The notes below the pieces were generated by a model, which was not told the origin of the DNA, made no database searches, and worked only from the letters and a program-made list of their open reading frames with translations. A program made the translations under genes and the position numbers. Shown piece after piece: positions 35,842 to 52,070 of a DNA stretch of 64,000 nt; positions within the stretch are counted from its first letter, which is position 1, and every line of letters begins with the position of its first letter. Source of the stretch: Gelria sp. Kuro-4 (lineage in GTDB: Bacteria; Bacillota; DTU030; DUMP01); assembly GCF_019668485.1 (NCBI RefSeq), contig NZ_AP024619.1, positions 1,797,001 to 1,861,000 of the forward strand, given 5' to 3'.

Positions 35842-36381
35842 TCACCCTTTCTTGTTGCGCAGCCACACCTTGGTCGCCACCTCCACCGGTCGCCCCGCCG
35901 CTCGCGCCACCAAGCGTACGGCCACCACCCGGCCGTTTTCCGCCAGGGAGCACGTAAACGCGGCTATACCTTCCGCCACCGGGTTATGCGAGCCGTGGAG
36001 GGAGCGCTGCAACTGGTCCCCCACCAAGGTGTAGGTCACCTCCTCCCAGTGGGGCCGAAGGTAGCTTTCTACAGGACGTTGCACCTGGGGTACCTCAAGG
36101 TAAATCTTCGTGCCATCGCCTGCCAGGGTCACCGCGCGCGCCGCTTTAAGGTCGCGTTCCAGCCAGCTCAGCGCCACCCAGGCGCTCTGAAGCGCGTCGC
36201 TTTGCAGGTTTTCATTGTGCACCGCCTTAAGCTGCGCCTGAAAGAGGCTGGCTAAGCCGGTCATGAGGAGGGCCGTCAAGGAAACCGCCACCAGCACTTC
36301 CACCAGGGTAAAACCGGCCCTCCCGCCGGCGGCCTTACTCTGCCGGCAGCGCCAGGGTAACCAGTTCAATCCTTTTTTCAT
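35842..36381 (-). CDS. prepilin-like protein (PilW/GspJ type)
   Basis: This 179-residue protein has the prepilin cleavage site GRAG|FTLVEVLVAVSLTA, an unusually long basic leader (about 22 residues) and a helix followed by a small beta domain. The ATG at 36381 follows GGGTGG; a GTG at 36387 is an alternative. It overlaps the upstream prepilin gene by 47 bases. Confidence 0.78.
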   Translation of the reverse strand: MKKGLNWLPWRCRQSKAAGGRAGFTLVEVLVAVSLTALLMTGLASLFQAQLKAVHNENLQSDALQSAWVALSWLERDLKAARAVTLAGDGTKIYLEVPQVQRPVESYLRPHWEEVTYTLVGDQLQRSLHGSHNPVAEGIAAFTCSLAENGRVVAVRLVARAAGRPVEVATKVWLRNKKG

Positions 36382-36709
36382 TTCCACCCTGCTCCCACTT
36401 GACGCTGACCTTGATCTCGCGCACGCCGCCGGGCCGGGGGGTTATGGCCACGGCGCGCTCAAAGAGCGGATCCGTCGGCACCGGCGCGAAATCCTCATCC
36501 TGCCAGGCCGCCGGGCCGAGCGCCAGAAGTTCTTCCAGACGGCTGGCGGCTAAGGATACGGCCCGGGCAGTATCCTCAGCCCCGGCGGTGGTTCGGCGGC
36601 TGGTGAGGGTAAGGGCCGTGAGCGGGGTAAGAACCAGCGCCAGGACCGCGACCGCGAGCAGTACTTCCACCAGGATGGCCCCACTTTTGTGCCGCCCTAC
36701 CCTGGCCAT
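36335..36709 (-). CDS. prepilin-like protein (PilV/GspI type)
   Basis: This 124-residue protein has a short basic leader (ARVGRHKSG), then AILVEVLLAVAVLALVLTPL, the hydrophobic pilin helix. It lacks the usual F/M after the cleavage glycine (alanine instead), but retains E5. The start is uncertain: ATG 36709 or GTG 36724, the latter overlapping the upstream stop and better placed for an AGGG site. Confidence 0.72.
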   Translation of the reverse strand: MARVGRHKSGAILVEVLLAVAVLALVLTPLTALTLTSRRTTAGAEDTARAVSLAASRLEELLALGPAAWQDEDFAPVPTDPLFERAVAITPRPGGVREIKVSVKWEQGGNEKRIELVTLALPAE

Positions 36710-36716
36710 TCTTTCT

Positions 36717-37184
36717 TCAACCACCTAATCCCTGCACCACCCGTACCCGACCTGTGGCCACCATGACTTTGACGGTAAGCAGGCCCCCCTGCTTATTTTG
36801 CAGCGGTATACTGGCCCCCGTATTGGGAGAGCCGCTGGGGTAAAACAAGAGCGGCGTCTTAGGTTGCAGGTAGTTGTTGGCGATGCTGATGCCTTCCGGC
36901 AGCCGGTGGAAGACGCCCTTTTCGCCGAAAGGCCCGGCCCTGTAGCCGTCGCGGCCATGGTCCAGCGAGTAAATGAACTGTATGTAGTACGCCCGCTCCT
37001 CCACCACAGCGCGGTTTTGCAGCTCGCGCAGGGTGCCGGCCAGCTCACGCGCCGCCTGCTGCAGGCTGAAAAAAGTCAAGAGCCTGCTTCCCTGCGGGAC
37101 GGCCGCCAGAGACAAAACGCCGATCAGCGCCAGTACGAAAAGCAGCTCCACCAGCGTGAAACCCGCGTTACCCCGCCTGCGCAT
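36717..37184 (-). CDS. prepilin-like protein (GspH/FimT type)
   Basis: This 155-residue protein has leader MRRRGNAG and FTLVELLFVLALIGVLSLAAVP, the canonical N-methylation and membrane helix. The rest includes RELAGTLRELQNRAVVEE, as in GspH/FimT, plus a C-terminal beta domain. It is probably a minor pilin that primes assembly. Confidence 0.8.
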   Translation of the reverse strand: MRRRGNAGFTLVELLFVLALIGVLSLAAVPQGSRLLTFFSLQQAARELAGTLRELQNRAVVEERAYYIQFIYSLDHGRDGYRAGPFGEKGVFHRLPEGISIANNYLQPKTPLLFYPSGSPNTGASIPLQNKQGGLLTVKVMVATGRVRVVQGLGG

Positions 37185-37187
37185 GGC

Positions 37188-37943
37188 CTACCTCCACACG
37201 TACCGAAAGTAAAGCTCCAGCAGCTCCGTACCCCACAGAGCGGCGCCCAGGCCGCCCGCCACCAGGAAAGGGCCGAAAGGGACGGCATCGGATCTTCTTT
37301 TCTTTTTCGCGAGAATAAGCCCGATTCCTGCCGCCGCGCCCAGAAAGAAGGCGAGAAAGAGCGCGGGCAAGACATTGGGCCAGCCAAGAAAGGCGCCCAG
37401 GGCGAGACCCAGCTTCACATCCCCGCCCCCCATGCCGCCGCGGCTGGCCCAGGCAATAAAAAGCAGCAGGGCGCAGCCCGCCAGCGCTCCCAGGAGGTAG
37501 GCCGGGCGCGGCCCGGGCGGTAAAAGCAAGGCGAGGGCCGCTCCACCGAGGGTGAAGGCGTCCGGGAGTACCAGGGTGTCAAGGTCGATGAGAGAGGCAG
37601 TGATAAAGAGGCTGCCCAGGGCCAGGGTGCGCAGGAGCTGCCACGTCGGGGCAAGCAGAAGCCCGGCGGCGACAAAAAACGCCCCGGTGCAGAGCTCCAC
37701 TGCCGGGTAACGCGGCGAGATAGGAGCGCGACAAAAGCGGCAGCGCCCTCTAAGCCAGAGAAAACTCAGGACCGGTACTAGGTCCCAAGCCGCCAGGGTA
37801 TGCCCGCATTTAGGACAGCGCGACCGCGGCCTAAGGAGCGACTCCCCCCGCGGCAGGCGGTGGGCCACCACGTTGAGGAAACTCCCTACCGTAAGGCCGA
37901 GGAGGGCGAGCAAGAAACTCAAGGGCGGTACAGGTAAGGCCAT
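37188..37943 (-). CDS. pilD: type IV prepilin peptidase / N-methyltransferase
   Basis: This 251-residue membrane protease has the N-terminal zinc-ribbon (CPKC near 43, CRFC near 70) and catalytic aspartates in SLIDLDTLVLPD near 140 and GGGDVKLGLALG near 195. It cleaves prepilin leaders and methylates the new N-terminus. About seven membrane helices are seen. The ATG at 37943 follows GAGGAAAT; the upstream in-frame starts add residues that would precede the conserved start. Confidence 0.93.
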   Translation of the reverse strand: MALPVPPLSFLLALLGLTVGSFLNVVAHRLPRGESLLRPRSRCPKCGHTLAAWDLVPVLSFLWLRGRCRFCRAPISPRYPAVELCTGAFFVAAGLLLAPTWQLLRTLALGSLFITASLIDLDTLVLPDAFTLGGAALALLLPPGPRPAYLLGALAGCALLLFIAWASRGGMGGGDVKLGLALGAFLGWPNVLPALFLAFFLGAAAGIGLILAKKKRRSDAVPFGPFLVAGGLGAALWGTELLELYFRYVWR

Positions 37944-37992
37944 GTTTATTTCCTCGGTGTGCATTCGGTGCAGCCGGGACTCCATGAAGAGC

Positions 37993-38394
37993 TTAGTTGC
38001 CGCTTCCGCCTTCACTGGAATCTTCGCCCCACGTTTCAGAGCTTTGGGTTACTTCGTACTCATGGTGTTCGCAGGTCAGTGTGAAGGTTTTGTCATCTTT
38101 GCTTTCGTACTCATATTGCTTCTTCCCTGCCGGGCACTGCGGAATGCCTTTGAGATACCGATCTGTGAGATCATCCAAGTGGTCGGTAGAGGGGTACTTC
38201 TGATTGTCTAAATAATAAGATTCGAGCGCCGTTTCAATCTGCTTCATATTCGCCTTGCAGGCCGTGGCCTTGGCTTCGTCGCTGCGGCCTGCGACCTGCG
38301 GCACCGCGATCCCGGCCAGCACGCCGATGATGAGGACGACGATCAGGAGCTCGATCAGGGTGAAGCCGCCCTGGTTCTTCAGCAGTCTGCGCAC
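37993..38394 (-). CDS. pilA: major type IV pilin candidate
   Basis: This 133-residue prepilin has leader MRRLLKNQGG, then FTLIELLIVVLIIGVLAGIAVPQ, followed by an acidic globular domain with cysteines near 52, 92 and 110 (a likely disulfide). The GTG at 38394 follows AAAGGAGGTG. The C-terminal tail is very Ser/Glu/Gly-rich. Its short length and canonical helix suit a major subunit. Confidence 0.85.
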   Translation of the reverse strand: MRRLLKNQGGFTLIELLIVVLIIGVLAGIAVPQVAGRSDEAKATACKANMKQIETALESYYLDNQKYPSTDHLDDLTDRYLKGIPQCPAGKKQYEYESKDDKTFTLTCEHHEYEVTQSSETWGEDSSEGGSGN

Positions 38395-38433
38395 CTTTTT
38401 CACCTCCTTTCGCGGGGATACTCGCGGCAACGG

Positions 38434-39642
38434 TCAGGTGACCATGGCCAGCGACGACAGCAGCGGGAGCATAAGCGCGAGAACGATAAAGCCGACAATG
38501 CCGCCGACGAATAGGATCAGGGCCGGCTCGGCCACCGCGGTGAGCACGGCCAGGTAGTGGTCGAGCTCGCGCTCGTAGAACGCTCCTACCTCCGCCAACA
38601 TCTCTTCCAGATTACCGGCTTCCTCCCCCACCCGCACCATCTGTACCAGGGGCCCGGGGAAGATCCGGCTCTGTGCGAACAGGTCGGCCAGCGTCCCACC
38701 GCGCTGAATGCCGGCTTGGATGCGCTCAAGTTCGCTCACAAAGACATGGTTAAGGGCGGTTCGTTTCACCAGATCCAGCGCTGCCACCAGGGGAATGCCG
38801 CTTCGGAGGGCGAGACTCAGGCTGCGGCAGAAGCGGGCCAGGTGGGCGCGGAGCAGAAGGGGGCCGATGAGCGGGAGCTTCAGCACCCGGCCGTCGCGCC
38901 ACCTGGAGCCGCGCCGGGTCGCCAGGAGAATGGAGGCCAAAGCGGTCAAAATGCCGCCGGCCAGGAGCAGCCGGAGCTGCCGCCGGGGCTCCCCCAGGGC
39001 TAAAAGAAGACGGGTGGGTGCGGGCAGTGCCGCCTGGACGTCGCCCAAGAGGCTCAGAAACTGGGGCAGGACCAGCCGCACCATGAGCAGAGAAACTGCG
39101 ACGGCCAAACAGAGGACAAAGACCGGGTAGGCGGCGGCGCTCCCGAGTTTCTCCCGGAGGCGGGCTTCGCGCTCATAGTTGGCCGCCAGCCGGTCGTAAA
39201 CTTCGTCCAGGTTGCCTGTGGCCTCGGCCGCTTCTGTCATGTGAACGAGGAGCGGCGGAAAAAGGCGGCCCTGGCTCTTGAGGGCCTGGCTGAGGGACCG
39301 CCCGCGGGCGATCTCCTGCCGGAGCGAGCGACAGGCATCCCGCAGGACCGGGCTGGCGGCTTCTCGTGCGAGGAGGTTCAGGCAGGCGAGCAGCGGTAAC
39401 CCGGCGCGAAACAGCGAACTGAACTGGCGCAGGAAGACGACCAGGGTCTTAAGAGGCACGCCGCGCCGGGCCGGGTGCCAGCGGGCCGGGGTACGCTGCC
39501 GCGTCTTACGGACTGCTTCAATGTTCACCACAAAGAGCCCCTGGTTGTGCAGCTCTGTTACCGCCTCCGCCACCGTTTCCACGGCCAGATCGCCCTGCAC
39601 GAGCTTCCCGGTGGCCGTACACGCCTGGTAGCGCACGTGCAT
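38434..39642 (-). CDS. pilC: type IV pilus inner-membrane platform protein PilC
   Basis: This 402-residue protein has two GspF domains, each with a helix bundle and membrane helices (around residues 170-190 and 215-235, 375-400). It carries FRAGLPLLACLNLLAR in the first domain and LRSGIPLVAALDLVK in the second, the internal repeat expected. It starts two bases after the pilT stop. Confidence 0.92.
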   Translation of the reverse strand: MHVRYQACTATGKLVQGDLAVETVAEAVTELHNQGLFVVNIEAVRKTRQRTPARWHPARRGVPLKTLVVFLRQFSSLFRAGLPLLACLNLLAREAASPVLRDACRSLRQEIARGRSLSQALKSQGRLFPPLLVHMTEAAEATGNLDEVYDRLAANYEREARLREKLGSAAAYPVFVLCLAVAVSLLMVRLVLPQFLSLLGDVQAALPAPTRLLLALGEPRRQLRLLLAGGILTALASILLATRRGSRWRDGRVLKLPLIGPLLLRAHLARFCRSLSLALRSGIPLVAALDLVKRTALNHVFVSELERIQAGIQRGGTLADLFAQSRIFPGPLVQMVRVGEEAGNLEEMLAEVGAFYERELDHYLAVLTAVAEPALILFVGGIVGFIVLALMLPLLSSLAMVT

Positions 39643-39644
39643 CC

Positions 39645-40700
39645 TTACATCCCTGCCCGCGCCAGCTGGACAAACAGCGCCTGGTCGTTGGCGGCTGCCA
39701 GGGCTTCTTCGTAAGCTACGCTACCGGCTTGGTACAGGCGGGTCAGGCTGTGCTCCAGCGCCTGCATACCAGTTTGGCGGCCGGCCTGGATGACAGAAGG
39801 AAGTTGAAAGGTTTTCCCCTCCCGGATGAGATTGCGCACCGCCGGCGTGGCCACGAGAATCTCCAGGGCCGCCACGCGGCCGCTGCCCGTCTGCCGGGGG
39901 AGCAGGCGCTGGGCGACGATGCCCGCGAGCACCCCGGCCAGCTGGCTACGCACCTGGGGCTGCTGGTGGGCGGGGAAAACGTCGATGATCCGGTCCACCG
40001 TTTGAGCGGCGCTGGCCGTGTGGAGCGTAGAGAGCACCAGATGGCCGGTTTCGGCGGCGGTAAGGGCCGTGGCGATGGTGGTAAGATCCCGCATTTCCCC
40101 CACCAGGATCACATCGGGATCCTGGCGCAAGGCGGCACGCAGGCCGCTGGCGAAGCTTTCTGTATCGCGCCCCACCTCACGTTGGTTGATGAGGGCGCGC
40201 CGGTTCACATGCCGGTACTCCACCGGGTCTTCAATGGTGATGATGTGAAGGTCCCGGGTGCGGTTGAGGTGTTCGATACAGGCGGCGAGGGTGGTGGATT
40301 TGCCTGAACCCGTAGGCCCAGTGACCAGCAGCAACCCCTGCCGCTGCTCGGCCAAAACCGTAAGGCCGGCCGGTAGACCCAGTTCTTCCAGGGTGGGGAC
40401 CCGCTGGGGCAGCAGGCGTATGGCAGCGGCCCAACCGCCCAGGCGGCGGTAAATGTTGAGGCGCAGGCGCAGGCTGGCCGTGGAGGCTGCTGTATCCAGC
40501 TCCCCTTTCTTCCCCAGCTCTTCCAGCTGGCCGGCCGGCAGAAGCGTGGTCAACCACTCCCGGAAGCCCTCCGCCGTTAGCACAGGCAGGTTGGTGCGCG
40601 CCAAGCGCCCGTCCACCCTGAGGAGCGGGGCTTCACCCGTGACGAGATGAATGTCCGAAGCGCCTTTTTGGGCCGCGAGTTCGAGAAGTTGCCGAAACAC
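39645..40700 (-). CDS. pilT: type IV pilus retraction ATPase PilT
   Basis: This 351-residue secretion ATPase has Walker A GPTGSGKSTT near residue 128, the Asp box ITIEDPVEY near 155, Walker B GEMRD near 200 and the His box TGHLVLSTLHT near 215, typical of PilT. It depolymerises pili for twitching and DNA uptake. A GTG start is used; the frame ends just before pilC. Confidence 0.93.
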   Translation of the reverse strand: MFRQLLELAAQKGASDIHLVTGEAPLLRVDGRLARTNLPVLTAEGFREWLTTLLPAGQLEELGKKGELDTAASTASLRLRLNIYRRLGGWAAAIRLLPQRVPTLEELGLPAGLTVLAEQRQGLLLVTGPTGSGKSTTLAACIEHLNRTRDLHIITIEDPVEYRHVNRRALINQREVGRDTESFASGLRAALRQDPDVILVGEMRDLTTIATALTAAETGHLVLSTLHTASAAQTVDRIIDVFPAHQQPQVRSQLAGVLAGIVAQRLLPRQTGSGRVAALEILVATPAVRNLIREGKTFQLPSVIQAGRQTGMQALEHSLTRLYQAGSVAYEEALAAANDQALFVQLARAGM

Positions 40701-40717
40701 GTTCTTCCCCCGTTTCC

Positions 40718-42406
40718 TTACAGTGCCGCGCGGATTACTTCCGCGATGGTTGTTCGGCCGGCGAGGACTTTAGCCACGCCGTCTTGCAAGAGGGGAATCA
40801 TACCTTCCTGGAGGGCGGCGGCACGGATTTCTTCAGCGCTGGCTTTGGCCAGAATAAGCCGGCGCAGTGCCGGGGTGACCACCATGCTCTCTTGAATCGC
40901 CGTGCGGCCCCAGTAGCCGGTATAGCGGCAGGCGGGACAACCGCGCCCCCGTTTGAGGGGCTCAGGCGGCCGGTCCGGGCCCAGCTCGAGGAGGGTCCAC
41001 TCTTCGGGCTCAGGCAGGTACTCTTCCTCGCAGCGGGGGCAGACGCAGCGCACCAGCCGCTGGGCCACTACCCCCGCCAGGGCGGAAGCGACCAGGTACG
41101 GCTCGACGCCCATGTCGAGCAGCCGGGTAATGGTCCCGGCTGCGTCGTTGGTATGAAGCGTCGAGAGCACCAGGTGCCCGGTGAGCGCCGAGCGGATGGC
41201 GACGTCGGCCGTTTCGCTGTCCCGGATTTCCCCCACCATGATGATGTTAGGATCCTGGCGCAGGATGGCCCGTAGGCCGTTGGCGAAGTCGATACCGGCC
41301 TTGGGGTTGACCTGCACTTGGTTAATACCGGGTATCTGGTACTCCACCGGGTCCTCGATGGTGATAATGTTCTGCTGCGGGGTGTTTAAGGTGCGGAGTG
41401 CGGCGTACAGCGTGGTCGTTTTGCCGCAGCCGGTAGGGCCGGTTACCAGCACCATGCCGTACGGCCGGGCGATCAGCTGGCGGAAACCGGTCAGCGCCTG
41501 GGCGGCAAACCCCAGGGCGGAGAGGTTCATGATGCGCGTGGTTTTGTCAAGGAGCCTCAGCACCACCTTCTCGCCGCGGATGGTAGGGAGGGTGGAAACG
41601 CGCACATCGATTTCGTGCCCACCCTGCTTCAGCTCAATGCGCCCGTCCTGGGGCGCCCGGCGCTCGGCGATGTCCATGCCGGCCATAACCTTGATGCGGG
41701 AGACGAGGGGCCCCAGCACGCTGGAGTTAAGGTTGATCACCGGCTGCAGCACCCCGTCGATGCGGAAGCGGACACGGAGGTCCTCGTCCAGGGGCTCGAT
41801 GTGAATGTCACTGGCCCGCGCCTCGACCGCTTGGGCAAAGAGCGAGTCAACTATGTTGATCGCGGCCGCCGAGTCTGTCCCGCTCGGACTGCCTGGGACG
41901 GGCTCTTCCCTTGTCCTGCTTTGGCTGAGGCGCCTCGACTCCTGGGCCACGTTTTCCAGGGCGCCGTAATGGTTCCGAATCTCCTGGGCAATCTCTTCTT
42001 CAGTTGCCACGGCCGGCCGGACCTCGTACCCGGAGGCCAACCGCACCTCATCGACGGCCACAACATTGAGCGGGTCGGCCATGGCGAGCAGGAGCGCGGA
42101 CCCGCTTATTCTCAGCGGCAGCACTTGGTGCCTCCGCGCCAAGGTCCCCGGAATACTCCGGAGGGCCTCCTCTTCCGGCGGGAAATCGGCCAGCGTGACA
42201 TGGGGTATACCGAGCTGAAACTCGAGCACCTCGGCGATCTGCCGAGGTGTAACATAACCAAGGCTTACCAGGGCCTGGCCCAGGCGCTCACCGGTTTCTT
42301 GCTGCCGCTTGAGGGCCTGGGCAAGCTGGTCCCGGGTGAGAAGCCCTTGGTCGACGAGCAGATCCCCCAACCGCGGCGGTTGGGAAAAAACTGTTGTCTC
42401 AGCCAC
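40718..42406 (-). CDS. pilB: type IV pilus extension ATPase PilB
   Basis: This 562-residue protein has a MshEN/GspE-N domain (DLLVDQGLLTRDQLAQAL and GYVTPRQIAEVL), Walker A GPTGCGKTTT near 325, the ITIEDPVEY Asp box, Walker B GEIRDSETAD and the zinc-binding CPRC...CPAC pair near 465-500. It drives pilus polymerisation. MshEN domains bind c-di-GMP in some homologues, which fits a comFB in the same operon. The GTG at 42406 follows GAGGTG; GTG at 42415 is an alternative. Confidence 0.93.
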   Translation of the reverse strand: MAETTVFSQPPRLGDLLVDQGLLTRDQLAQALKRQQETGERLGQALVSLGYVTPRQIAEVLEFQLGIPHVTLADFPPEEEALRSIPGTLARRHQVLPLRISGSALLLAMADPLNVVAVDEVRLASGYEVRPAVATEEEIAQEIRNHYGALENVAQESRRLSQSRTREEPVPGSPSGTDSAAAINIVDSLFAQAVEARASDIHIEPLDEDLRVRFRIDGVLQPVINLNSSVLGPLVSRIKVMAGMDIAERRAPQDGRIELKQGGHEIDVRVSTLPTIRGEKVVLRLLDKTTRIMNLSALGFAAQALTGFRQLIARPYGMVLVTGPTGCGKTTTLYAALRTLNTPQQNIITIEDPVEYQIPGINQVQVNPKAGIDFANGLRAILRQDPNIIMVGEIRDSETADVAIRSALTGHLVLSTLHTNDAAGTITRLLDMGVEPYLVASALAGVVAQRLVRCVCPRCEEEYLPEPEEWTLLELGPDRPPEPLKRGRGCPACRYTGYWGRTAIQESMVVTPALRRLILAKASAEEIRAAALQEGMIPLLQDGVAKVLAGRTTIAEVIRAAL

Positions 42407-42512
42407 GTTGCCCACCTCATCACCTAAGTCTTATTCGCCATGTGGGACCAGAATCCTCCTTTAGGACCATGATTTTCTACACAAATTAAACTGCCCCAAA
42501 CCGGCCGAGGCA

Positions 42513-43973: not shown

Positions 43974-43999
43974 AAGATTCATAGGAAAGGAGGATGACC

Positions 44000-44476
44000 G
44001 TGAGTAAAACCGTGATCGGGATCTTTGGCAGTGAGGATGCGGCTCGGCGTGCCGTCGAGGAGCTCCGTAATTCCGGCTTTGGCACCAACGAGATTTCCAT
44101 CGTGGCGCGCGAAGGTGCCGGCCGGGGCGGCGATGCCACCATGGGTATGGGCAACGACATCAGCGGCGGCGTCACCACCGGCGGCGTCCTCGGCGGCTTG
44201 GCCGGATTGGCGGCGGGAGCAGGTGCTTTGGCCATTCCCGGAATAGGACCGTTAATCGCGGCCGGCCCCATCGCCGGTCTTATTTCCGGGGCCGCCACGG
44301 GCGGGATCGCCGGCGGACTCCTCGATTGGGGTATCCCGGAAGAACGCGGCCGTTATTACGAGGGCAAGGTGCGCGAAGGCAAGATCCTGGCCACCATCCG
44401 CGCCGAAGACAACAAAGTGGATAAAGCCGCGCAGGTTCTACGCAACCAGGGTGCCACCGACGTGGAGACCCATTAA
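44000..44476 (+). CDS. general stress protein 17M-like / glycine-zipper protein
   Basis: This 158-residue protein begins SKTVIGIFGSEDAARRAVEELRNSGF, a ferredoxin-like YflT/GSP17M domain, followed by a glycine/alanine-rich stretch of two hydrophobic segments (residues about 55-110), then GIPEERGRYYEGKVREG and a C-terminal alpha/beta unit. Similar proteins are induced by cold or general stress, possibly membrane-associated. The GTG at 44000 follows AAAGGAGG; an in-frame ATG at 43994 is directly against it. Confidence 0.75.
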   Translation: MSKTVIGIFGSEDAARRAVEELRNSGFGTNEISIVAREGAGRGGDATMGMGNDISGGVTTGGVLGGLAGLAAGAGALAIPGIGPLIAAGPIAGLISGAATGGIAGGLLDWGIPEERGRYYEGKVREGKILATIRAEDNKVDKAAQVLRNQGATDVETH

Positions 44477-45822: not shown

Positions 45823-47703
45823 TTATGCCAGGCGCAGGGCCCGGTTGTAGCAATCCACCGCTTCTTCAGCACGCCCCAGATAATCGAGGCACATACCTTT
45901 GCCGCTGTAGTAAACCAGTTCTTCGGGCGTCAGGGCGAGCGCGCGTTCGTAAGCCGCCAGCGCCTCCTGATACTTTCCTTGTTTAAAGAGGCAGGCCCCT
46001 TTGTTCCCCCAGTAAACGGCGTTGTTAGGCTCAAGCTTAAGTGCCAGGTTGAAACACTCGGAGGCCTCGCGCATTCTGTTCAAGGCCATAAGACAAAGGC
46101 CGCGGTTGTTGAGCATGCCGGTGTCGGTCGGGTTGAGCTGCAAGACTTGATCATAGCACGCCAGCGCTTCTTTGTACCGCCCCAGCCGCGTGAGGCAGGA
46201 GGCCTTATTGTGCAGCAGGTTGAGGTCGTCACCTTCCACCCGCAGCGCCAGCTCGTAGCAGCGCAGGGCTTCTTCGTAACGGCCCAGTTTGCCCAGGCAA
46301 AAACCTTTGTTGTTGAGCAGGTTCGGATCGCGCGGGCGCCGCCGGAGGGCGCGATTGTAATACGCCAGGGCCGGATCGAACTGGCCTTCTTGGCCGAGCA
46401 GGAGGGCTAAATTACCCAGGATTACGGGATCGTCGGGCGTTAGCTTCAAGGCCTCGCGGTAAAGTCGGGCGGCTTCTTGGCGCCGGCCCAGGTTGCTAAG
46501 GCAGAGCCCTTCGTTGTTGAGCAGGGTGACGTCGGGTCCAATCGCTGCGCGCGCTTCTTCATAGACGGCGGCCGCTTCCGCGAACCCTGCGCCTGCCTCC
46601 AGCACCTGCGCCAGCGCCAGCCAAGCAGGTTTTAACTTGGGGTCTATCTCTACGGCCCGGCGAAAACAGGCTGCAGCCGGGCCGTCCTGCCCTTGTTGCT
46701 GGTAAACCGTACCCAGCAAGTGGATAAGGTACGCGTTCCCCGGGGCCCGGGCAGTAGCCTGCTCGAGCAAGGAGACGGCTTTGTCCAGGCTCCCCTGGTA
46801 CTGGTAAACCACGGCCAACGCCGCCGGAATATCAGCCGCCGCGGGCTCAGCCGCCATGGCAGCGTGCAGCAGCTTGACGCCGCCTTCTACCCGGCCGGCG
46901 AACAGGGCCAGCTGGGCCAGGCGGAGCTGAACGCCCGTCCGGTTAAAAAACGATCGCCGGGACGGCTGGGTTCGGACGATGCGGCCGAGGGCGGCGGCTG
47001 CATCCGTACGGGAAAGAGCCCCTGCCTGTTGTTCGGGGGCGGCGGCTGCTGTAAAGGTAAAGCCGGCCTGAACCAAGGCGGCGGCCATTTTCTTGGCAGC
47101 CAGGTAACCGGCTACCCGCGTCCGGAAGAAACCGCCTGCTTCCTCTTCCCACCAGGCGGCTGCGGCGGCCAGTTCGGCGGCCGCAGGTTCACGGTAACGC
47201 CCGCGGTGGATCTTAACGCCCGTTAGCCTCGATTTCCCTATCCTCTTTTCCGTTACCAGCAGGGCGGTAACGGGAAAAACGTAAGGAGGCAGCTGCAGCC
47301 GGGTGCGCACCGCCGGGGCTTCGCCTAAGGCCTGAGGTAATAAGATGCAACTTAACCCCAGCTTCTCGGCGGCCTGTGCGGCAGCCTGCGCGCTCCGGGC
47401 GGTCAGACCGACACCGTAGATGAAACCTGCTAGGCCGGCGAGGGCAAAACCGGCTTCGTGAGGGCAGGTCTGCTTAAGGGCAAAGTAGTCCAGGCAAAAG
47501 ACCATACCCACCGCTGCCTGCCGTGGCCAGTCGCATTCGGTTAAGCCGGCCAACCAGTCCCGGTCGGCGGGTTCTGTCAACACCACCACACTGGTGGCCG
47601 GTAGGTTCTCGCAACCGGGGAGCTTCTCCATGGCTGTGAGGAGTTCTTCCAGCCAGGGTAGTTCCTGAGCCGGCCTGTGCTCTTGCGGGGATGATCCGCT
47701 CAC
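45823..47703 (-). CDS. nitroreductase-like domain fused to TPR repeats
   Basis: This 626-residue protein has an N-terminal ~200 residues resembling the latter part of an NfrA/FRP-type FMN nitroreductase: VGMVFCLDY near 70, the AAQAAEKLGLSCILLP helix near 110, VRTRLQLPPYVFPVTALLVTE near 135-155 and IHRGRYREP near 175. The N-terminal RRSIR-type FMN-contacting motif was not found. The rest is at least nine tetratricopeptide repeats (units near YNRALRRRPRDPNLLNNKG, YDQVLQLNPTDTGMLNNRG). The GTG at 47703 is preceded by GGGAGG. The TPR part suggests protein binding; the reductase part may be degenerate. Confidence 0.72.
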   Translation of the reverse strand: MSGSSPQEHRPAQELPWLEELLTAMEKLPGCENLPATSVVVLTEPADRDWLAGLTECDWPRQAAVGMVFCLDYFALKQTCPHEAGFALAGLAGFIYGVGLTARSAQAAAQAAEKLGLSCILLPQALGEAPAVRTRLQLPPYVFPVTALLVTEKRIGKSRLTGVKIHRGRYREPAAAELAAAAAWWEEEAGGFFRTRVAGYLAAKKMAAALVQAGFTFTAAAAPEQQAGALSRTDAAAALGRIVRTQPSRRSFFNRTGVQLRLAQLALFAGRVEGGVKLLHAAMAAEPAAADIPAALAVVYQYQGSLDKAVSLLEQATARAPGNAYLIHLLGTVYQQQGQDGPAAACFRRAVEIDPKLKPAWLALAQVLEAGAGFAEAAAVYEEARAAIGPDVTLLNNEGLCLSNLGRRQEAARLYREALKLTPDDPVILGNLALLLGQEGQFDPALAYYNRALRRRPRDPNLLNNKGFCLGKLGRYEEALRCYELALRVEGDDLNLLHNKASCLTRLGRYKEALACYDQVLQLNPTDTGMLNNRGLCLMALNRMREASECFNLALKLEPNNAVYWGNKGACLFKQGKYQEALAAYERALALTPEELVYYSGKGMCLDYLGRAEEAVDCYNRALRLA

Positions 47704-47795
47704 GCTCCAATCCCTCCCAATAAAAGGCAACACTGGGATTTATAGCCAAGTATTCGCCTTTTCGGAAGGGAAAACCTGCTGGAGCGAGAAATATG

Positions 47796-48227
47796 TTAGC
47801 GGTTTTTTTCCGCCATAAAGCGATCGGGCTCATACTGTTTCGACGGCAATTCCGGCCAGCCTTGCTCAAGGCCTTGGAGCAGGACTTCACCGGTGGCTGG
47901 ATTGGTGGCGGCCGGAACGTAGTGCACGTCACAAAGGCGTAGCAGGGCGGTGATATCCGGCTCATGCGGTTGCGGGGTTAAAGGGTCGCGGAAGAAAAAG
48001 ACGGCGTGCACCCGCCTGGAGGCGATCTCAGCCCCAATCTGCTGGTCTCCTCCCAGGGGTCCGGACTGGTAGCGTTCCACCTCAAGGCCGGTACGCTCTT
48101 GGAGCAGGCGCCCCGTATTGCCGGTGGCGATGAGCTGGGCCTGCGCAAAAAAATCCCGGTGCCGGGCCACAAATTCTGCCAGTTGGCTCTTCATGCGATC
48201 GTGAGCGATGAGCGCGATGCGCTTCAT
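47796..48227 (-). CDS. mgsA: methylglyoxal synthase
   Basis: This 143-residue enzyme converts dihydroxyacetone phosphate to methylglyoxal, a low-phosphate bypass of glycolysis. It has IALIAHDRMK near 4, the TGNTGRLLQE phosphate loop near 35, SGPLGGDQQIGA with the catalytic D61 near 55, and the H88 region QPHEPD. Size is normal. The ATG at 48227 follows AAAGGAG and lies 31 bases from the divergent nth start. Confidence 0.93.
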   Translation of the reverse strand: MKRIALIAHDRMKSQLAEFVARHRDFFAQAQLIATGNTGRLLQERTGLEVERYQSGPLGGDQQIGAEIASRRVHAVFFFRDPLTPQPHEPDITALLRLCDVHYVPAATNPATGEVLLQGLEQGWPELPSKQYEPDRFMAEKNR

Positions 48228-48900: not shown

Positions 48901-50190
48901 TTTTTCCGCCTGTTTCTGGGCCTCAGAAAGGATTTTGGCGCGGTCAAGCGTCGTCGGCCGGCCGTGCTCCAGGAGAATTCTCCCGGCAACGAGCACCGTA
49001 TCCACATCACCGGCCCGCGCACTGTAAACCACGCGGGAGATGACGTCATGGCGCGGCACCAGGTGTGCCCGCCCTTCATCCAAGAGCACCAGGTCAGCCT
49101 GCTTACCTTCCTCCAGGCTGCCGATACGGGACTCCAACCCGAGGGCCTCTGCTCCACCCAGGGTGGCTGAGCGCAGGGCCGCCCGGGCCGGCACGGCCGC
49201 AGGGTCGCCCGTTGCCAGCTTGGGCAGGAGCGCTGCCAGGCGTGCTTCTTCCAGGACATCCAGGTTGTTATTGCTGGCTGCCCCGTCGGTGCCAAGGCCG
49301 ACTTTTACTCCAGCTTCAAGCAGAGCCGCCAGCGGGGCCAGCCCGCTGGCCAGTTTGAGGTTACTCCCAGGGTTATGCGCCACTCCGATCCCGTCCGCTT
49401 TGAGGTATGCCATGTCCTGTCCACTCAGGTGCACACAGTGGGCAGCGAGGACAGGTACCGGACCCTCCCGGCCGAGGATTTCATGCAGCAGCCCCACGGG
49501 GGTGAAGCCCGTTTGAGCTTGGAGCTCCTGTACCTCAGCGCTGGTTTCTGCCAAATGAATGTGAATGCCGCAGCCCAGTTCTTTGGCGGCGGCAACCACG
49601 TCGCTCAGGAAGGGACGCGGACACGTGTAGGGGGCGTGCGGACCGAGGCGGGCCGTGATGCGTCCGGCAGCGCTCCGCTGCCGCCGCCGGACAAAGTCGG
49701 CCGCTGCGGCCAGCCGTTTGTCCGCATCAGGGGTCGTTCCTGTGAGACCGGGGGCCAGGTCGGCTCTCAGGCCGCTTTCCGTCACGGCCTGCGCCGTTTC
49801 CTCGGAGTAAAAATACATATCGGCAAAAGTGGTGACACCGGCTTCGAGCATTTCGAGGCAGGCGAGGAGTGTCCCCCAATAGACCGCTTCCGGTGTGAGC
49901 CGGGCCTCAAGGGGCCAGATTTTTTCTTCCAGCCAGGGCTTAAGCGCCAGGTCGTCGGCGTAACTGCGCAGCAAGGTCATGGCGGCATGCGTGTGCGCGT
50001 TGATGAACCCGGGGAGGGCCACCTTCCCTTCCCCGCGGATGACGCGGTCCGGCTGCCAGGCCAGGCGCTGTTGGGAAGGCCCGACATAGACCAGGCGTTC
50101 ATCCTCACAGATGATATCACCCGGCGCGTAAACATGGTTCTCGGCATCCATGGTAACCACAGTTGCGCCTTCAATAAGCAGTTTGCTCAA
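48889..50190 (-). CDS. mtaD: 5-methylthioadenosine / S-adenosylhomocysteine deaminase family amidohydrolase
   Basis: This 433-residue amidohydrolase has HTHAAMTLLR (metal site) near 67, the HLAETSAE block near 220, the HNPGSNLKLASG near 285 and GTDGAASNNNLD with the metal aspartate near 310. It deaminates MTA and SAH to their inosyl forms. It may be the main route for these by-products here, because the nucleosidase gene is a pseudogene. The TTG at 50190 follows GGGGGAGGAAG; its start overlaps the upstream TPR gene by 20 bases. Confidence 0.9.
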   Translation of the reverse strand: MSKLLIEGATVVTMDAENHVYAPGDIICEDERLVYVGPSQQRLAWQPDRVIRGEGKVALPGFINAHTHAAMTLLRSYADDLALKPWLEEKIWPLEARLTPEAVYWGTLLACLEMLEAGVTTFADMYFYSEETAQAVTESGLRADLAPGLTGTTPDADKRLAAAADFVRRRQRSAAGRITARLGPHAPYTCPRPFLSDVVAAAKELGCGIHIHLAETSAEVQELQAQTGFTPVGLLHEILGREGPVPVLAAHCVHLSGQDMAYLKADGIGVAHNPGSNLKLASGLAPLAALLEAGVKVGLGTDGAASNNNLDVLEEARLAALLPKLATGDPAAVPARAALRSATLGGAEALGLESRIGSLEEGKQADLVLLDEGRAHLVPRHDVISRVVYSARAGDVDTVLVAGRILLEHGRPTTLDRAKILSEAQKQAEKLVG

Positions 50191-51262
50191 CAGCACTTCC
50201 TCCCCCGTGGACAACTGTTTTTTTCGGTGCCCGGCGCTTTGTAGCCTGACAGAGCGAGGCCAGGTAAACCCTGGCTTCTTCGTGCCCTGCCCGGGCGGCT
50301 TTGCGTAAGTAGCAAAGCGCCGGTGGGATCTTTTTTTCCTGCCAGAGCAGGTGCCCCAGTTCGTAGTTGATGGTGGGCTGTTCCGGGTCCAGCTCATGCG
50401 CCTTCTTGAGGTGTTGTTCCGCCGCCGCTGTATTGCCGGCCTGCTCCTCGGCGCGGGCCAGGATAAGCCAGTAGTTGGGTTCGCTGGGCGCCAGGGTTAC
50501 GGCGCGCTCCGCCCAAACCCTCGCCTCTTTGTGTTTGCCGCAGGCCAGCATGAACTGAGCGAAATCGGCCTGCAGCGCCGGGTCGCAGGGGGACAGGCGG
50601 ATGGCCTCCGCCCAGGCGGCTTCCGCCTCCTCCGTTTTGCCGCCGGCCCCAAAGACCTGTGCATAGGTCACAAAAACGGCCGGATTAAAGGACTCCAGGC
50701 CTTGAGCCCGCTCCAGGTAGCTGAGGGCCAGGCCCAGGTCACTGCCGGCGGCCAGGGCAGCCATGCGACAGAGATTCGGTACCACGCGCTCCTCCCCGTC
50801 CAGCTTTACGCTGTAGGACATGTGCTCCAGGAGCTCGACCAGCCGTGCCTCTTCTTTGGCCAGCATAAGTCCCTGTTGCCAGAGAGCGCGCGCCTCGCGC
50901 AGCTGTCCCTGCTTAAAGTATACTAAACCGAGCTCAGCGTAAACGAGATCATTGCGCGGCTGTGCGGCCAGGCACTTGCCGAAGGCGAGGGTGGCTTCGC
51001 GGTACCTGCCCTGGCGGCTGTAGAGAAAGCCGAGAAAATAATGCGCCCGGCTGAGTTCCGGATCGCGCAGCAGTGCGGCCTGGAAGCATTCTTCCGCGGG
51101 ACCGACCAAACGCCCCTCCAGGTAGGCTTGTCCGAGTTTTAGGAGTCGCTCGGGGTCCTCGGGCAGCCTCCCTGTCGCAGCCCGCAGGGCTGCCACAGCC
51201 TGCTGCCAGTCAGGCTGCCCTGCTTTTTGCCCTGCCCCTTCGTGGGTGGTTTGGGTGTTCAT
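50171..51262 (-). CDS. TPR-repeat protein
   Basis: This 363-residue protein consists of tetratricopeptide-like helical hairpins, e.g. FQAALLRDPELSRAHYFLG, FGKCLAAQPRNDLVYAELG and LKKAHELDPEQPTINYELG. No membrane segment or other domain is seen. The ATG at 51262 follows GGGGAGGG. A role as a scaffold is likely but not specific. Confidence 0.85.
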   Translation of the reverse strand: MNTQTTHEGAGQKAGQPDWQQAVAALRAATGRLPEDPERLLKLGQAYLEGRLVGPAEECFQAALLRDPELSRAHYFLGFLYSRQGRYREATLAFGKCLAAQPRNDLVYAELGLVYFKQGQLREARALWQQGLMLAKEEARLVELLEHMSYSVKLDGEERVVPNLCRMAALAAGSDLGLALSYLERAQGLESFNPAVFVTYAQVFGAGGKTEEAEAAWAEAIRLSPCDPALQADFAQFMLACGKHKEARVWAERAVTLAPSEPNYWLILARAEEQAGNTAAAEQHLKKAHELDPEQPTINYELGHLLWQEKKIPPALCYLRKAARAGHEEARVYLASLCQATKRRAPKKTVVHGGGSAVEQTAY

Positions 51263-51302
51263 CGTTCGTCCCTCCCCACCCCAAATTATACCAGCGATGG
51301 CA

Positions 51303-52070
51303 TTATATGTCAAAAGGCTTGTCCGTCCACCCCTTGAGGTCGGCCAGGCGGCGGTAATCGGTCAGGTCCAGGCTGAGCGGCGTTATTGAAATCCTGCCGG
51401 CGGCGACGGCCGCAATGTCGGTATCGGGAGGGCACTCCTCCGGCAGGGGTTCCCCGGCCAGCCAGTAGTAAGTTTGCCCGCGCGGGTCTTGCCGCGCTTC
51501 AAAGGTATTCTTATAACGGCGTGTTCCCAGGCGGGTAATGCTGAGGCCGCGGATTTCCCGGGCGGGGCGCGCCGGAACGTTAACGTTGAGCAGGGTTTCG
51601 GCCAGAGCCGGCTTCGCGAGGAGGCGTTGGACGATGGCCCGCGCCAGCCGGGCGGCCAGGCTGTAGTCGGCGTCCGGGGCGTGGGTGGCCAGGGAAACGG
51701 CCAGTGCGGGCAGCCCGAACAGGAGCCCTTCTAAGGCTGCCGCCACTGTCCCGGAGTAAAAGACGTCCGTGCCCAAATTAGGGCCGCGGTTGATGCCGGC
51801 GACAACCAGGTCCGGCTTGCGGGGAAGCAGGGTGGTTAGAGCCAGTTTAACGCAATCGCCCGGTGTGCCTGTTACGGCCCACGCCGGGCCGGCGAAGTGC
51901 TTCACCTCACGCACCCGCAGGGGGCGGTCCATGGTAATGGCATGACCGGAAGCGCTCCGCTCCCGGTCGGGTGCAACTATGGCCACTTGATCGGCCGGGG
52001 AAAACGCACCGGCCAGCGCCGTAAGTCCAGCGGCATCTATTCCATCATCGTTACTAAGGAGGACAAACAT
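51303..52070 (-). CDS. surE: 5'/3'-nucleotidase SurE
   Basis: This 255-residue metal-dependent survival protein phosphatase starts VLLSNDDGIDAAGL (metal aspartates) and contains SGHAITM near 40, the SGTVAAALEG motif near 105 and GINRGPNLG near 93. It dephosphorylates nucleoside monophosphates and short polyphosphates. The length is normal. It is followed closely by the TPR and mtaD genes. Confidence 0.95.
   Translation of the reverse strand: MFVLLSNDDGIDAAGLTALAGAFSPADQVAIVAPDRERSASGHAITMDRPLRVREVKHFAGPAWAVTGTPGDCVKLALTTLLPRKPDLVVAGINRGPNLGTDVFYSGTVAAALEGLLFGLPALAVSLATHAPDADYSLAARLARAIVQRLLAKPALAETLLNVNVPARPAREIRGLSITRLGTRRYKNTFEARQDPRGQTYYWLAGEPLPEECPPDTDIAAVAAGRISITPLSLDLTDYRRLADLKGWTDKPFDI

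What the first reader, a model, noticed from the sequence alone, without database searches (positions are those of the whole stretch)
45823..47703. Nitroreductase-like domain fused to a long TPR array
The first ~200 residues align by pattern with the second half of FMN nitroreductases, yet the FMN-contacting arginine motif at the start was not found. Following this, nine or more TPRs form a long superhelix. I know of no described protein of this architecture; the reductase fold may be a ligand sensor.
Basis: partly seen in the sequence, partly recalled or inferred. Interest (0 to 1): 0.55.

Follow-up and report, generated by a model that had tools for sequence, protein, structure and literature searches.

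The report
Dead nitroreductase fused to TPR superhelix
This gene makes a protein whose front part is a flavin-enzyme fold that appears to have lost its flavin-binding residues and whose back part is a long helical spiral likely to grip other proteins; the combination is conserved within one small group of bacteria, but its job is not yet known.

Summary
The ORF at 45823-47703 (- strand, 626 aa) joins an NfsA/FRP-type nitroreductase fold (residues 8-219; structural Z 17-20 to NfsA, NfrA and YcnD) to 11 TPRs (256-626). The fusion is found in 10 of 13 genomes held for the class and in no other genome of a 398-genome phylum sample. Flavin-site positions kept in 26-27 of 27 stand-alone relatives survive in 0-3 of 10 fusions, while structural residues survive and dN/dS is about 0.17-0.26. 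It looks like a selected pseudoenzyme domain. The TPR half resembles a wider family of 302-444 aa TPR proteins without a reductase domain (44 other sampled genomes), often near surE. It carries an OGT-like Asn-6 ladder and an unusual Cys-10 ladder. Best reading: a peptide-binding TPR scaffold that gained a catalytically dead nitroreductase as a structural, probably dimerising, cap. A ligand sensor is not excluded but gains no support: no fusion-specific conserved pocket residue was found. Flavin content, oligomeric state and partner are untested.

The parts
45823..47703 (-). CDS of the pseudo-nitroreductase-TPR fusion, 626 aa, GTG start
   Evidence: homologues of matching length
47711..47718 (-). 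purine-rich ribosome-binding site (GGGAGGGA) 7 bases before the GTG
   Evidence: sequence read; a similar G-rich site before all 10 homologues
47047..47682 (-). NfsA-type nitroreductase fold, residues 8-219, lacking the HRSIR segment and the other flavin-contact positions tested
45826..46938 (-). 11 TPR repeats, residues 256-626
45826..46530 (-). repeats 5-11 (residues 392-626): most conserved part; Asn at TPR position 6 (397, 431, 465, 499, 533, 567) and Cys at position 10 (401, 469, 503, 537, 571, 605)
47796..48227 (-). upstream neighbour, methylglyoxal-synthase-like (MGS domain); same neighbour in the 5 fusion loci of family f1, absent in the f2 loci fetched

Best explanation
A cytoplasmic adaptor or scaffold protein. 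Shown by computation: an NfsA-type nitroreductase domain sits in front of a TPR superhelix that belongs to, or lies near, a wider stand-alone TPR protein family; the known flavin-site residues have been lost in all or nearly all of 10 fusions while the fold stayed under purifying selection. Inferred: the domain is a catalytically dead structural cap that most likely homodimerises through the long helix E (residues 91-114), as NfsA does, so that two TPR arms are presented; repeats 5-10 grip an extended polypeptide segment through an Asn-6 ladder, as in the TPR lumen of O-GlcNAc transferase. The bound partner is unknown.
For: Fold: VIA-align Z 17.3-19.6 to the nine NfsA/FRP-group rows, residues 8-219; profile E 2.9e-32 to 1.4e-27 for the three best PDB chains. 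Flavin site lost: S/T13 in 27 of 27 stand-alone, in the fusions S in 1 of 10 and T in 4 of 10 (in an unreliable N-terminal alignment); R15 27 of 27 vs 3 of 10; Q67 26 of 27 vs 1 of 10; G130 27 of 27 vs 1 of 10; basic residue at 169 27 of 27 vs 0 of 10. Structural positions kept: L51, D72, P139, Y170 in 35 of 35. Selection: N-domain dN/dS 0.167, 0.214, 0.264, 0.210 in four pairs; TPR5-11 0.035-0.075. One fusion origin: fused N-domains separate from stand-alone ones (93/88) and fused TPR regions form one clade (96/96). Fusion confined to the class: 10 of 398 genomes sampled; all other N-domain hits lie in frames of 340 aa or less. TPR partner family without the reductase domain: 44 other genomes, frames of 302-444 aa. 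Peptide groove: N6 in 4-7 repeats of each of 26 proteins; best fold match is the OGT TPR domain, 1w3b, TM 0.81 by target; the role of N6 in OGT was read in PMC10618255 and PMC5967971 (passages).
Against: Dimerisation was not tested (no multimer prediction available). Asn at position 6 is, from recall, common in TPR consensus sequences, so it is weak evidence for an OGT-like mode; controls had it in a minority of repeats. Full-model confidence is low for residues 155-228; the separate N-domain model is better (mean pLDDT 79.6) but its Foldseek TM to NfsA is only about 0.6. Neighbouring genes give no clear partner: the gene upstream differs between families f1 and f2. The TPR clade was built on repeats, which align ambiguously, and contains long branches.
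Confidence: 0.5

Rival explanations
1. Ligand sensor: the degenerate reductase domain still binds a flavin, quinone or other small molecule by different residues and thereby switches the TPR arm.
For: The fold and purifying selection are kept; members of family f2 stay closer to true nitroreductases and still match PF00881.
Against: No fusion-specific conserved pocket residue; the glycine and basic-residue positions 130 and 169 are changed in nearly all; members of family f1 do not match PF00881.
Confidence: 0.2
2. Still a flavoenzyme: FMN is held by an alternative motif or supplied in trans, and the TPRs deliver a protein substrate.
For: The overall NfsA fold and the helix E glutamine (NfsA Q113) are retained in 10 of 10.
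Against: Loss of the S13, R15, Q67, G130 and R169 equivalents together; no stand-alone NfsA-type gene found among the neighbours, the only hits being the fusions themselves.
Confidence: 0.07
3. Passive remnant: the reductase domain has no role and persists by inertia.
For: It evolves several times faster than TPR5-11; members of family f1 have diverged beyond Pfam recognition.
Against: dN/dS near 0.2 in four close pairs and retention in 10 of 13 genomes of the class.
Confidence: 0.1
4. The Cys-10 ladder is the working part: a thiol array in the TPR stack binds metal or senses redox state, and the reductase fold is an accessory.
For: Cys at position 10 in 57 of 114 fused and 75 of 150 family repeats against 1 of 64 control repeats.
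Against: Position 10 is normally a small buried residue (recalled), so Cys may simply pack there; repeat duplication alone could spread it. One control protein was a wrong reading frame (see Tried and rejected).
Confidence: 0.13

Closest known systems
E. coli NfsA / Vibrio FRP / Bacillus NfrA and YcnD nitro-flavin reductases
   Same: Same fold over residues 8-219, four-stranded core and long helix E, conserved structural residues
   Different: First 17 residues absent; flavin contact positions lost; fused to TPRs; no evidence of catalysis
TPR domain of O-GlcNAc transferase (OGT)
   Same: TPR superhelix, Asn at position 6 along repeats 5-10
   Different: No glycosyltransferase domain; Cys at position 10; bacterial; ligand unknown
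Stand-alone TPR proteins of the same phylum, often near surE (302-444 aa; unnamed family)
   Same: 36-49% identity over the C-terminal repeats in the ten best matches outside the class, Cys-10 and Asn-6 ladders, usually a similar C-terminal end
   Different: They lack the nitroreductase domain

Membership tests
NfsA-type oxygen-insensitive nitroreductases | Nitroreductase (NfsA/FRP group) fold | tested here: met
   Z 17.3-19.6, 202-209 residues aligned; profile hits
NfsA-type oxygen-insensitive nitroreductases | N-terminal [HR]x[ST]xR FMN-contact motif | tested here: not met
   In 27 of 27 stand-alone rows, in 0 of 10 fused rows
NfsA-type oxygen-insensitive nitroreductases | Basic residue at 169, Gly 130, Gln 67 | tested here: not met
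   0, 1 and 1 of 10 fused against 27, 27 and 26 of 27
NfsA-type oxygen-insensitive nitroreductases | Bound FMN and NADPH-dependent reductase activity | not testable with these tools
   needs purified protein
NfsA-type oxygen-insensitive nitroreductases | Homodimer through helix E | not testable with these tools
   helix 91-114 predicted; no multimer prediction available
TPR superhelix proteins | Tandem 34-residue TPR units | tested here: met
   Pfam TPR_1 E 3e-65, nine stretches; 11 helix pairs
OGT-type Asn-ladder TPR | Asn at TPR position 6 along the lumen | tested here: met
   repeats 5-10 of the window protein; five of the six invariant in 10 fusions; that they face a lumen is inferred
O-GlcNAc transferase | GT41 glycosyltransferase domain after the TPRs | tested here: not met
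   the protein ends inside repeat 11
Stand-alone Cys-ladder TPR family (grouped here) | Cys-10 repeats and clade membership | tested here: met
   57 of 114 repeats; fused clade inside the 26-row group
Stand-alone Cys-ladder TPR family (grouped here) | Gene near surE | tested here: inconclusive
   surE-like gene in 12 of 16 stand-alone loci fetched and, for the fusion, in the window and 4 of 9 other class loci; several of the 5 loci without it are short or cut

The most novel reading that the evidence does not exclude
A family of TPR proteins, many of them encoded near surE, carries a stacked cysteine ladder along a peptide-binding superhelix and works as a thiol- or metal-based sensor or client-holding scaffold; in one class it acquired a decommissioned flavin reductase as a dimerising or regulatory cap.
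Probability: 0.12. Interest if true: 0.65.

Novelty: new variant of a known kind. Interest (0 to 1): 0.42.

Why it matters
Nitroreductase folds are known to have been reused for several enzymatic roles (recalled), but a flavin-free structural reuse fused to a TPR superhelix was not found in the papers searched. It offers a case of enzyme-to-scaffold conversion with intermediate stages (f2 closer to true enzymes, f1 further decayed) and points to an uncharacterised, widely kept TPR protein family with a cysteine ladder.

Tried and rejected
Rejected: a start-site or frameshift artefact that hides the FMN motif (frame closed upstream, mgsA there; the motif is absent in all 10 homologues). Rejected: the motif being supplied by the basic stretch near residue 250 (my own first thought); it is not conserved in the alignment and lies at the first TPR helix. 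Rejected: that the TPR gene at 50171-51313, next to surE, belongs to the same clade; the tree separates it, though by long branches. No RNA element other than tRNAs reached threshold between 42000 and 52000. Literature searches for the architecture, for loss of the flavin motif and for a surE-TPR link gave nothing relevant in their listings.

Weak points of my own work: one of the four own-genome control proteins (locus L074) was a wrong reading frame, and some control repeats had a gap at position 10; one search repeated the count without it and Cys is not among the six commonest control residues there. dN/dS pairs L004-L005 (saturated) and L001-L002 (dS 3.4) were not relied on. Two stand-alone rows (L030, L039) were left out of alignment A4 because my motif search picked the wrong place; they are in the 27-row counts. 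Neighbour genes were called by a simple longest-frame script, not a gene finder. Of the 44 stand-alone TPR genomes, 16 were looked at for neighbours.

Full report
What is there. The reading frame at 45823-47703 on the - strand is real: GTG start at 47703 behind a GGGAGGGA site, 626 codons. Homologues of 624-648 aa occur in 10 of the 13 genomes held for the class (the window's own included); the three without a match (G003, G005, G006) are drafts of 92-93% completeness.

The N-terminal domain. NCBIfam model NF008033 matches residues 18-149 at E 2e-9 from profile position 27; Pfam sees nothing in this part of the window protein. A profile of 10 fused N-domains finds the NfsA group in the PDB (best 3eof 2.9e-32, NfrA1 5hdj 2.9e-28, NfsA 1f5v 1.4e-27). 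An AlphaFold model made with 35 sequences (mean pLDDT 79.6, pTM 0.74) aligns over residues 8-218 with residues 18-240 of NfsA at Z 18.2 (range 17.3-19.6 for the nine NfsA/FRP-group rows). So nearly the whole fold is present, not just the second half, and what is missing is the first 17 residues with HRSIR.

The active site. Using NfsA numbering, 27 of 27 stand-alone relatives keep S/T13, R15, G130 and a basic residue at 169, and 26 of 27 keep Q67. Among the 10 fusions the same positions survive as follows: S13 in 1 (4 more have T), R15 in 3, Q67 in 1, G130 in 1, R/K169 in 0. The N-terminal columns are poorly aligned in the fusions, so their few matches may be accidental. Published NfsA structures name Arg 15, Lys 167, Gln 67, Ser 41, Arg 203 and Arg 225 in ligand or NADP binding (PMC8286842 and PMC9912195, passages and one section read); a full list of FMN contacts was not in the text I read, so calling S13, G130 and R169 flavin contacts rests on recall. 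The 18 positions at least 90% conserved in the fusions are all shared by 13-25 of 25 stand-alone enzymes; none is new. The domain is not decaying freely: dN/dS 0.167, 0.214, 0.264 and 0.210 in four close pairs, against 0.035, 0.073, 0.075 and 0.057 in TPR5-11. Family f2 fusions still match PF00881, family f1 fusions including the window's do not (30 of 35 rows match), so the loss is graded.

The TPR half. Eleven helix pairs begin near residues 256, 290... 596. Repeats 5-11 are the most conserved part. [quoted passage not shown]). Asn at position 6 occurs in repeats 5-10, five of the six invariant in the 10 fusions; in OGT this ladder contacts the backbone of extended peptides (PMC10618255, PMC5967971, passages). 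Asn 6 is, from recall, frequent in TPRs, so this is suggestive only. Cys at position 10 is more unusual: 57 of 114 fused and 75 of 150 family repeats, 1 of 64 control repeats (with the control weakness told under Tried and rejected).

Origin. The C-terminal 235 residues find a strong match (E 1e-30 or better) in 54 of 398 genomes sampled across the phylum. Ten are the fusions, and the other 44 have frames of 302-444 aa, without the reductase domain in the ten read in full. Among 16 of those 44 loci examined for neighbours, 12 have a surE-like gene within the fetched stretch; in the window four genes lie between the fusion and surE. A tree groups the fused TPR regions as one clade (96/96) within that set, away from the second TPR protein at 50171-51313. 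The fused N-domains are likewise set apart from stand-alone enzymes (93/88). The N-domain profile matched in 106 of 398 genomes, and only the 10 class genomes had frames over 600 aa. The simplest history is one fusion in the ancestor of the class, followed by loss of the flavin site. Small samples, ambiguous repeat alignment and long branches limit this.

Function. The gene next to the fusion is not constant (mgsA in family f1; a transporter-like pair next to an oligopeptide-type binding protein in f2), so context names no partner. I favour a scaffold in which the dead reductase is a structural, probably dimerising, cap and the TPR lumen holds an extended polypeptide (0.5). Shown: fold, loss of site residues, selection, distribution. 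Inferred: absence of flavin, dimerisation, peptide binding.

Novelty. No description of a nitroreductase-TPR fusion appeared in the searches made (listings only; the library lacks most subscription journals). It is a new variant of known parts, not a new kind of system.

Noticed in passing
window 50171-51313 (-): A second TPR protein (380 aa) next to surE, kept in three other class loci, in a clade apart from the fusion's TPR region.
   Followed up: partly
window 45826-46530 and loci L095-L110: Cysteine at TPR position 10 recurs at 34-residue spacing in the fusion and in a wide stand-alone TPR family, rarely in the control TPR proteins.
   Followed up: partly
loci L095-L097, L102, L106, L108-L110: The stand-alone TPR gene often sits in a stretch with surE and genes that look like folE and queC/D/E (the latter names recognised by eye, not tested).
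   Followed up: no
window 36001-42415 (-): A run of genes that look like a type IV pilus or type II secretion set (ATPase-like proteins and several GFTLVE-type prepilins), by eye only.
   Followed up: no
window 43994-44476 (+): 160-aa glycine-rich protein with a weak YflT/ActD-type match; a similar-looking protein lies near the fusion in L055 1925-2407 (by eye).
   Followed up: no
loci L054-L057, L059: In family f2 the mgsA and nth neighbours are replaced by ABC-transporter-like genes (by eye; one binding protein confirmed as SBP_bac_5) upstream of the fusion.
   Followed up: partly
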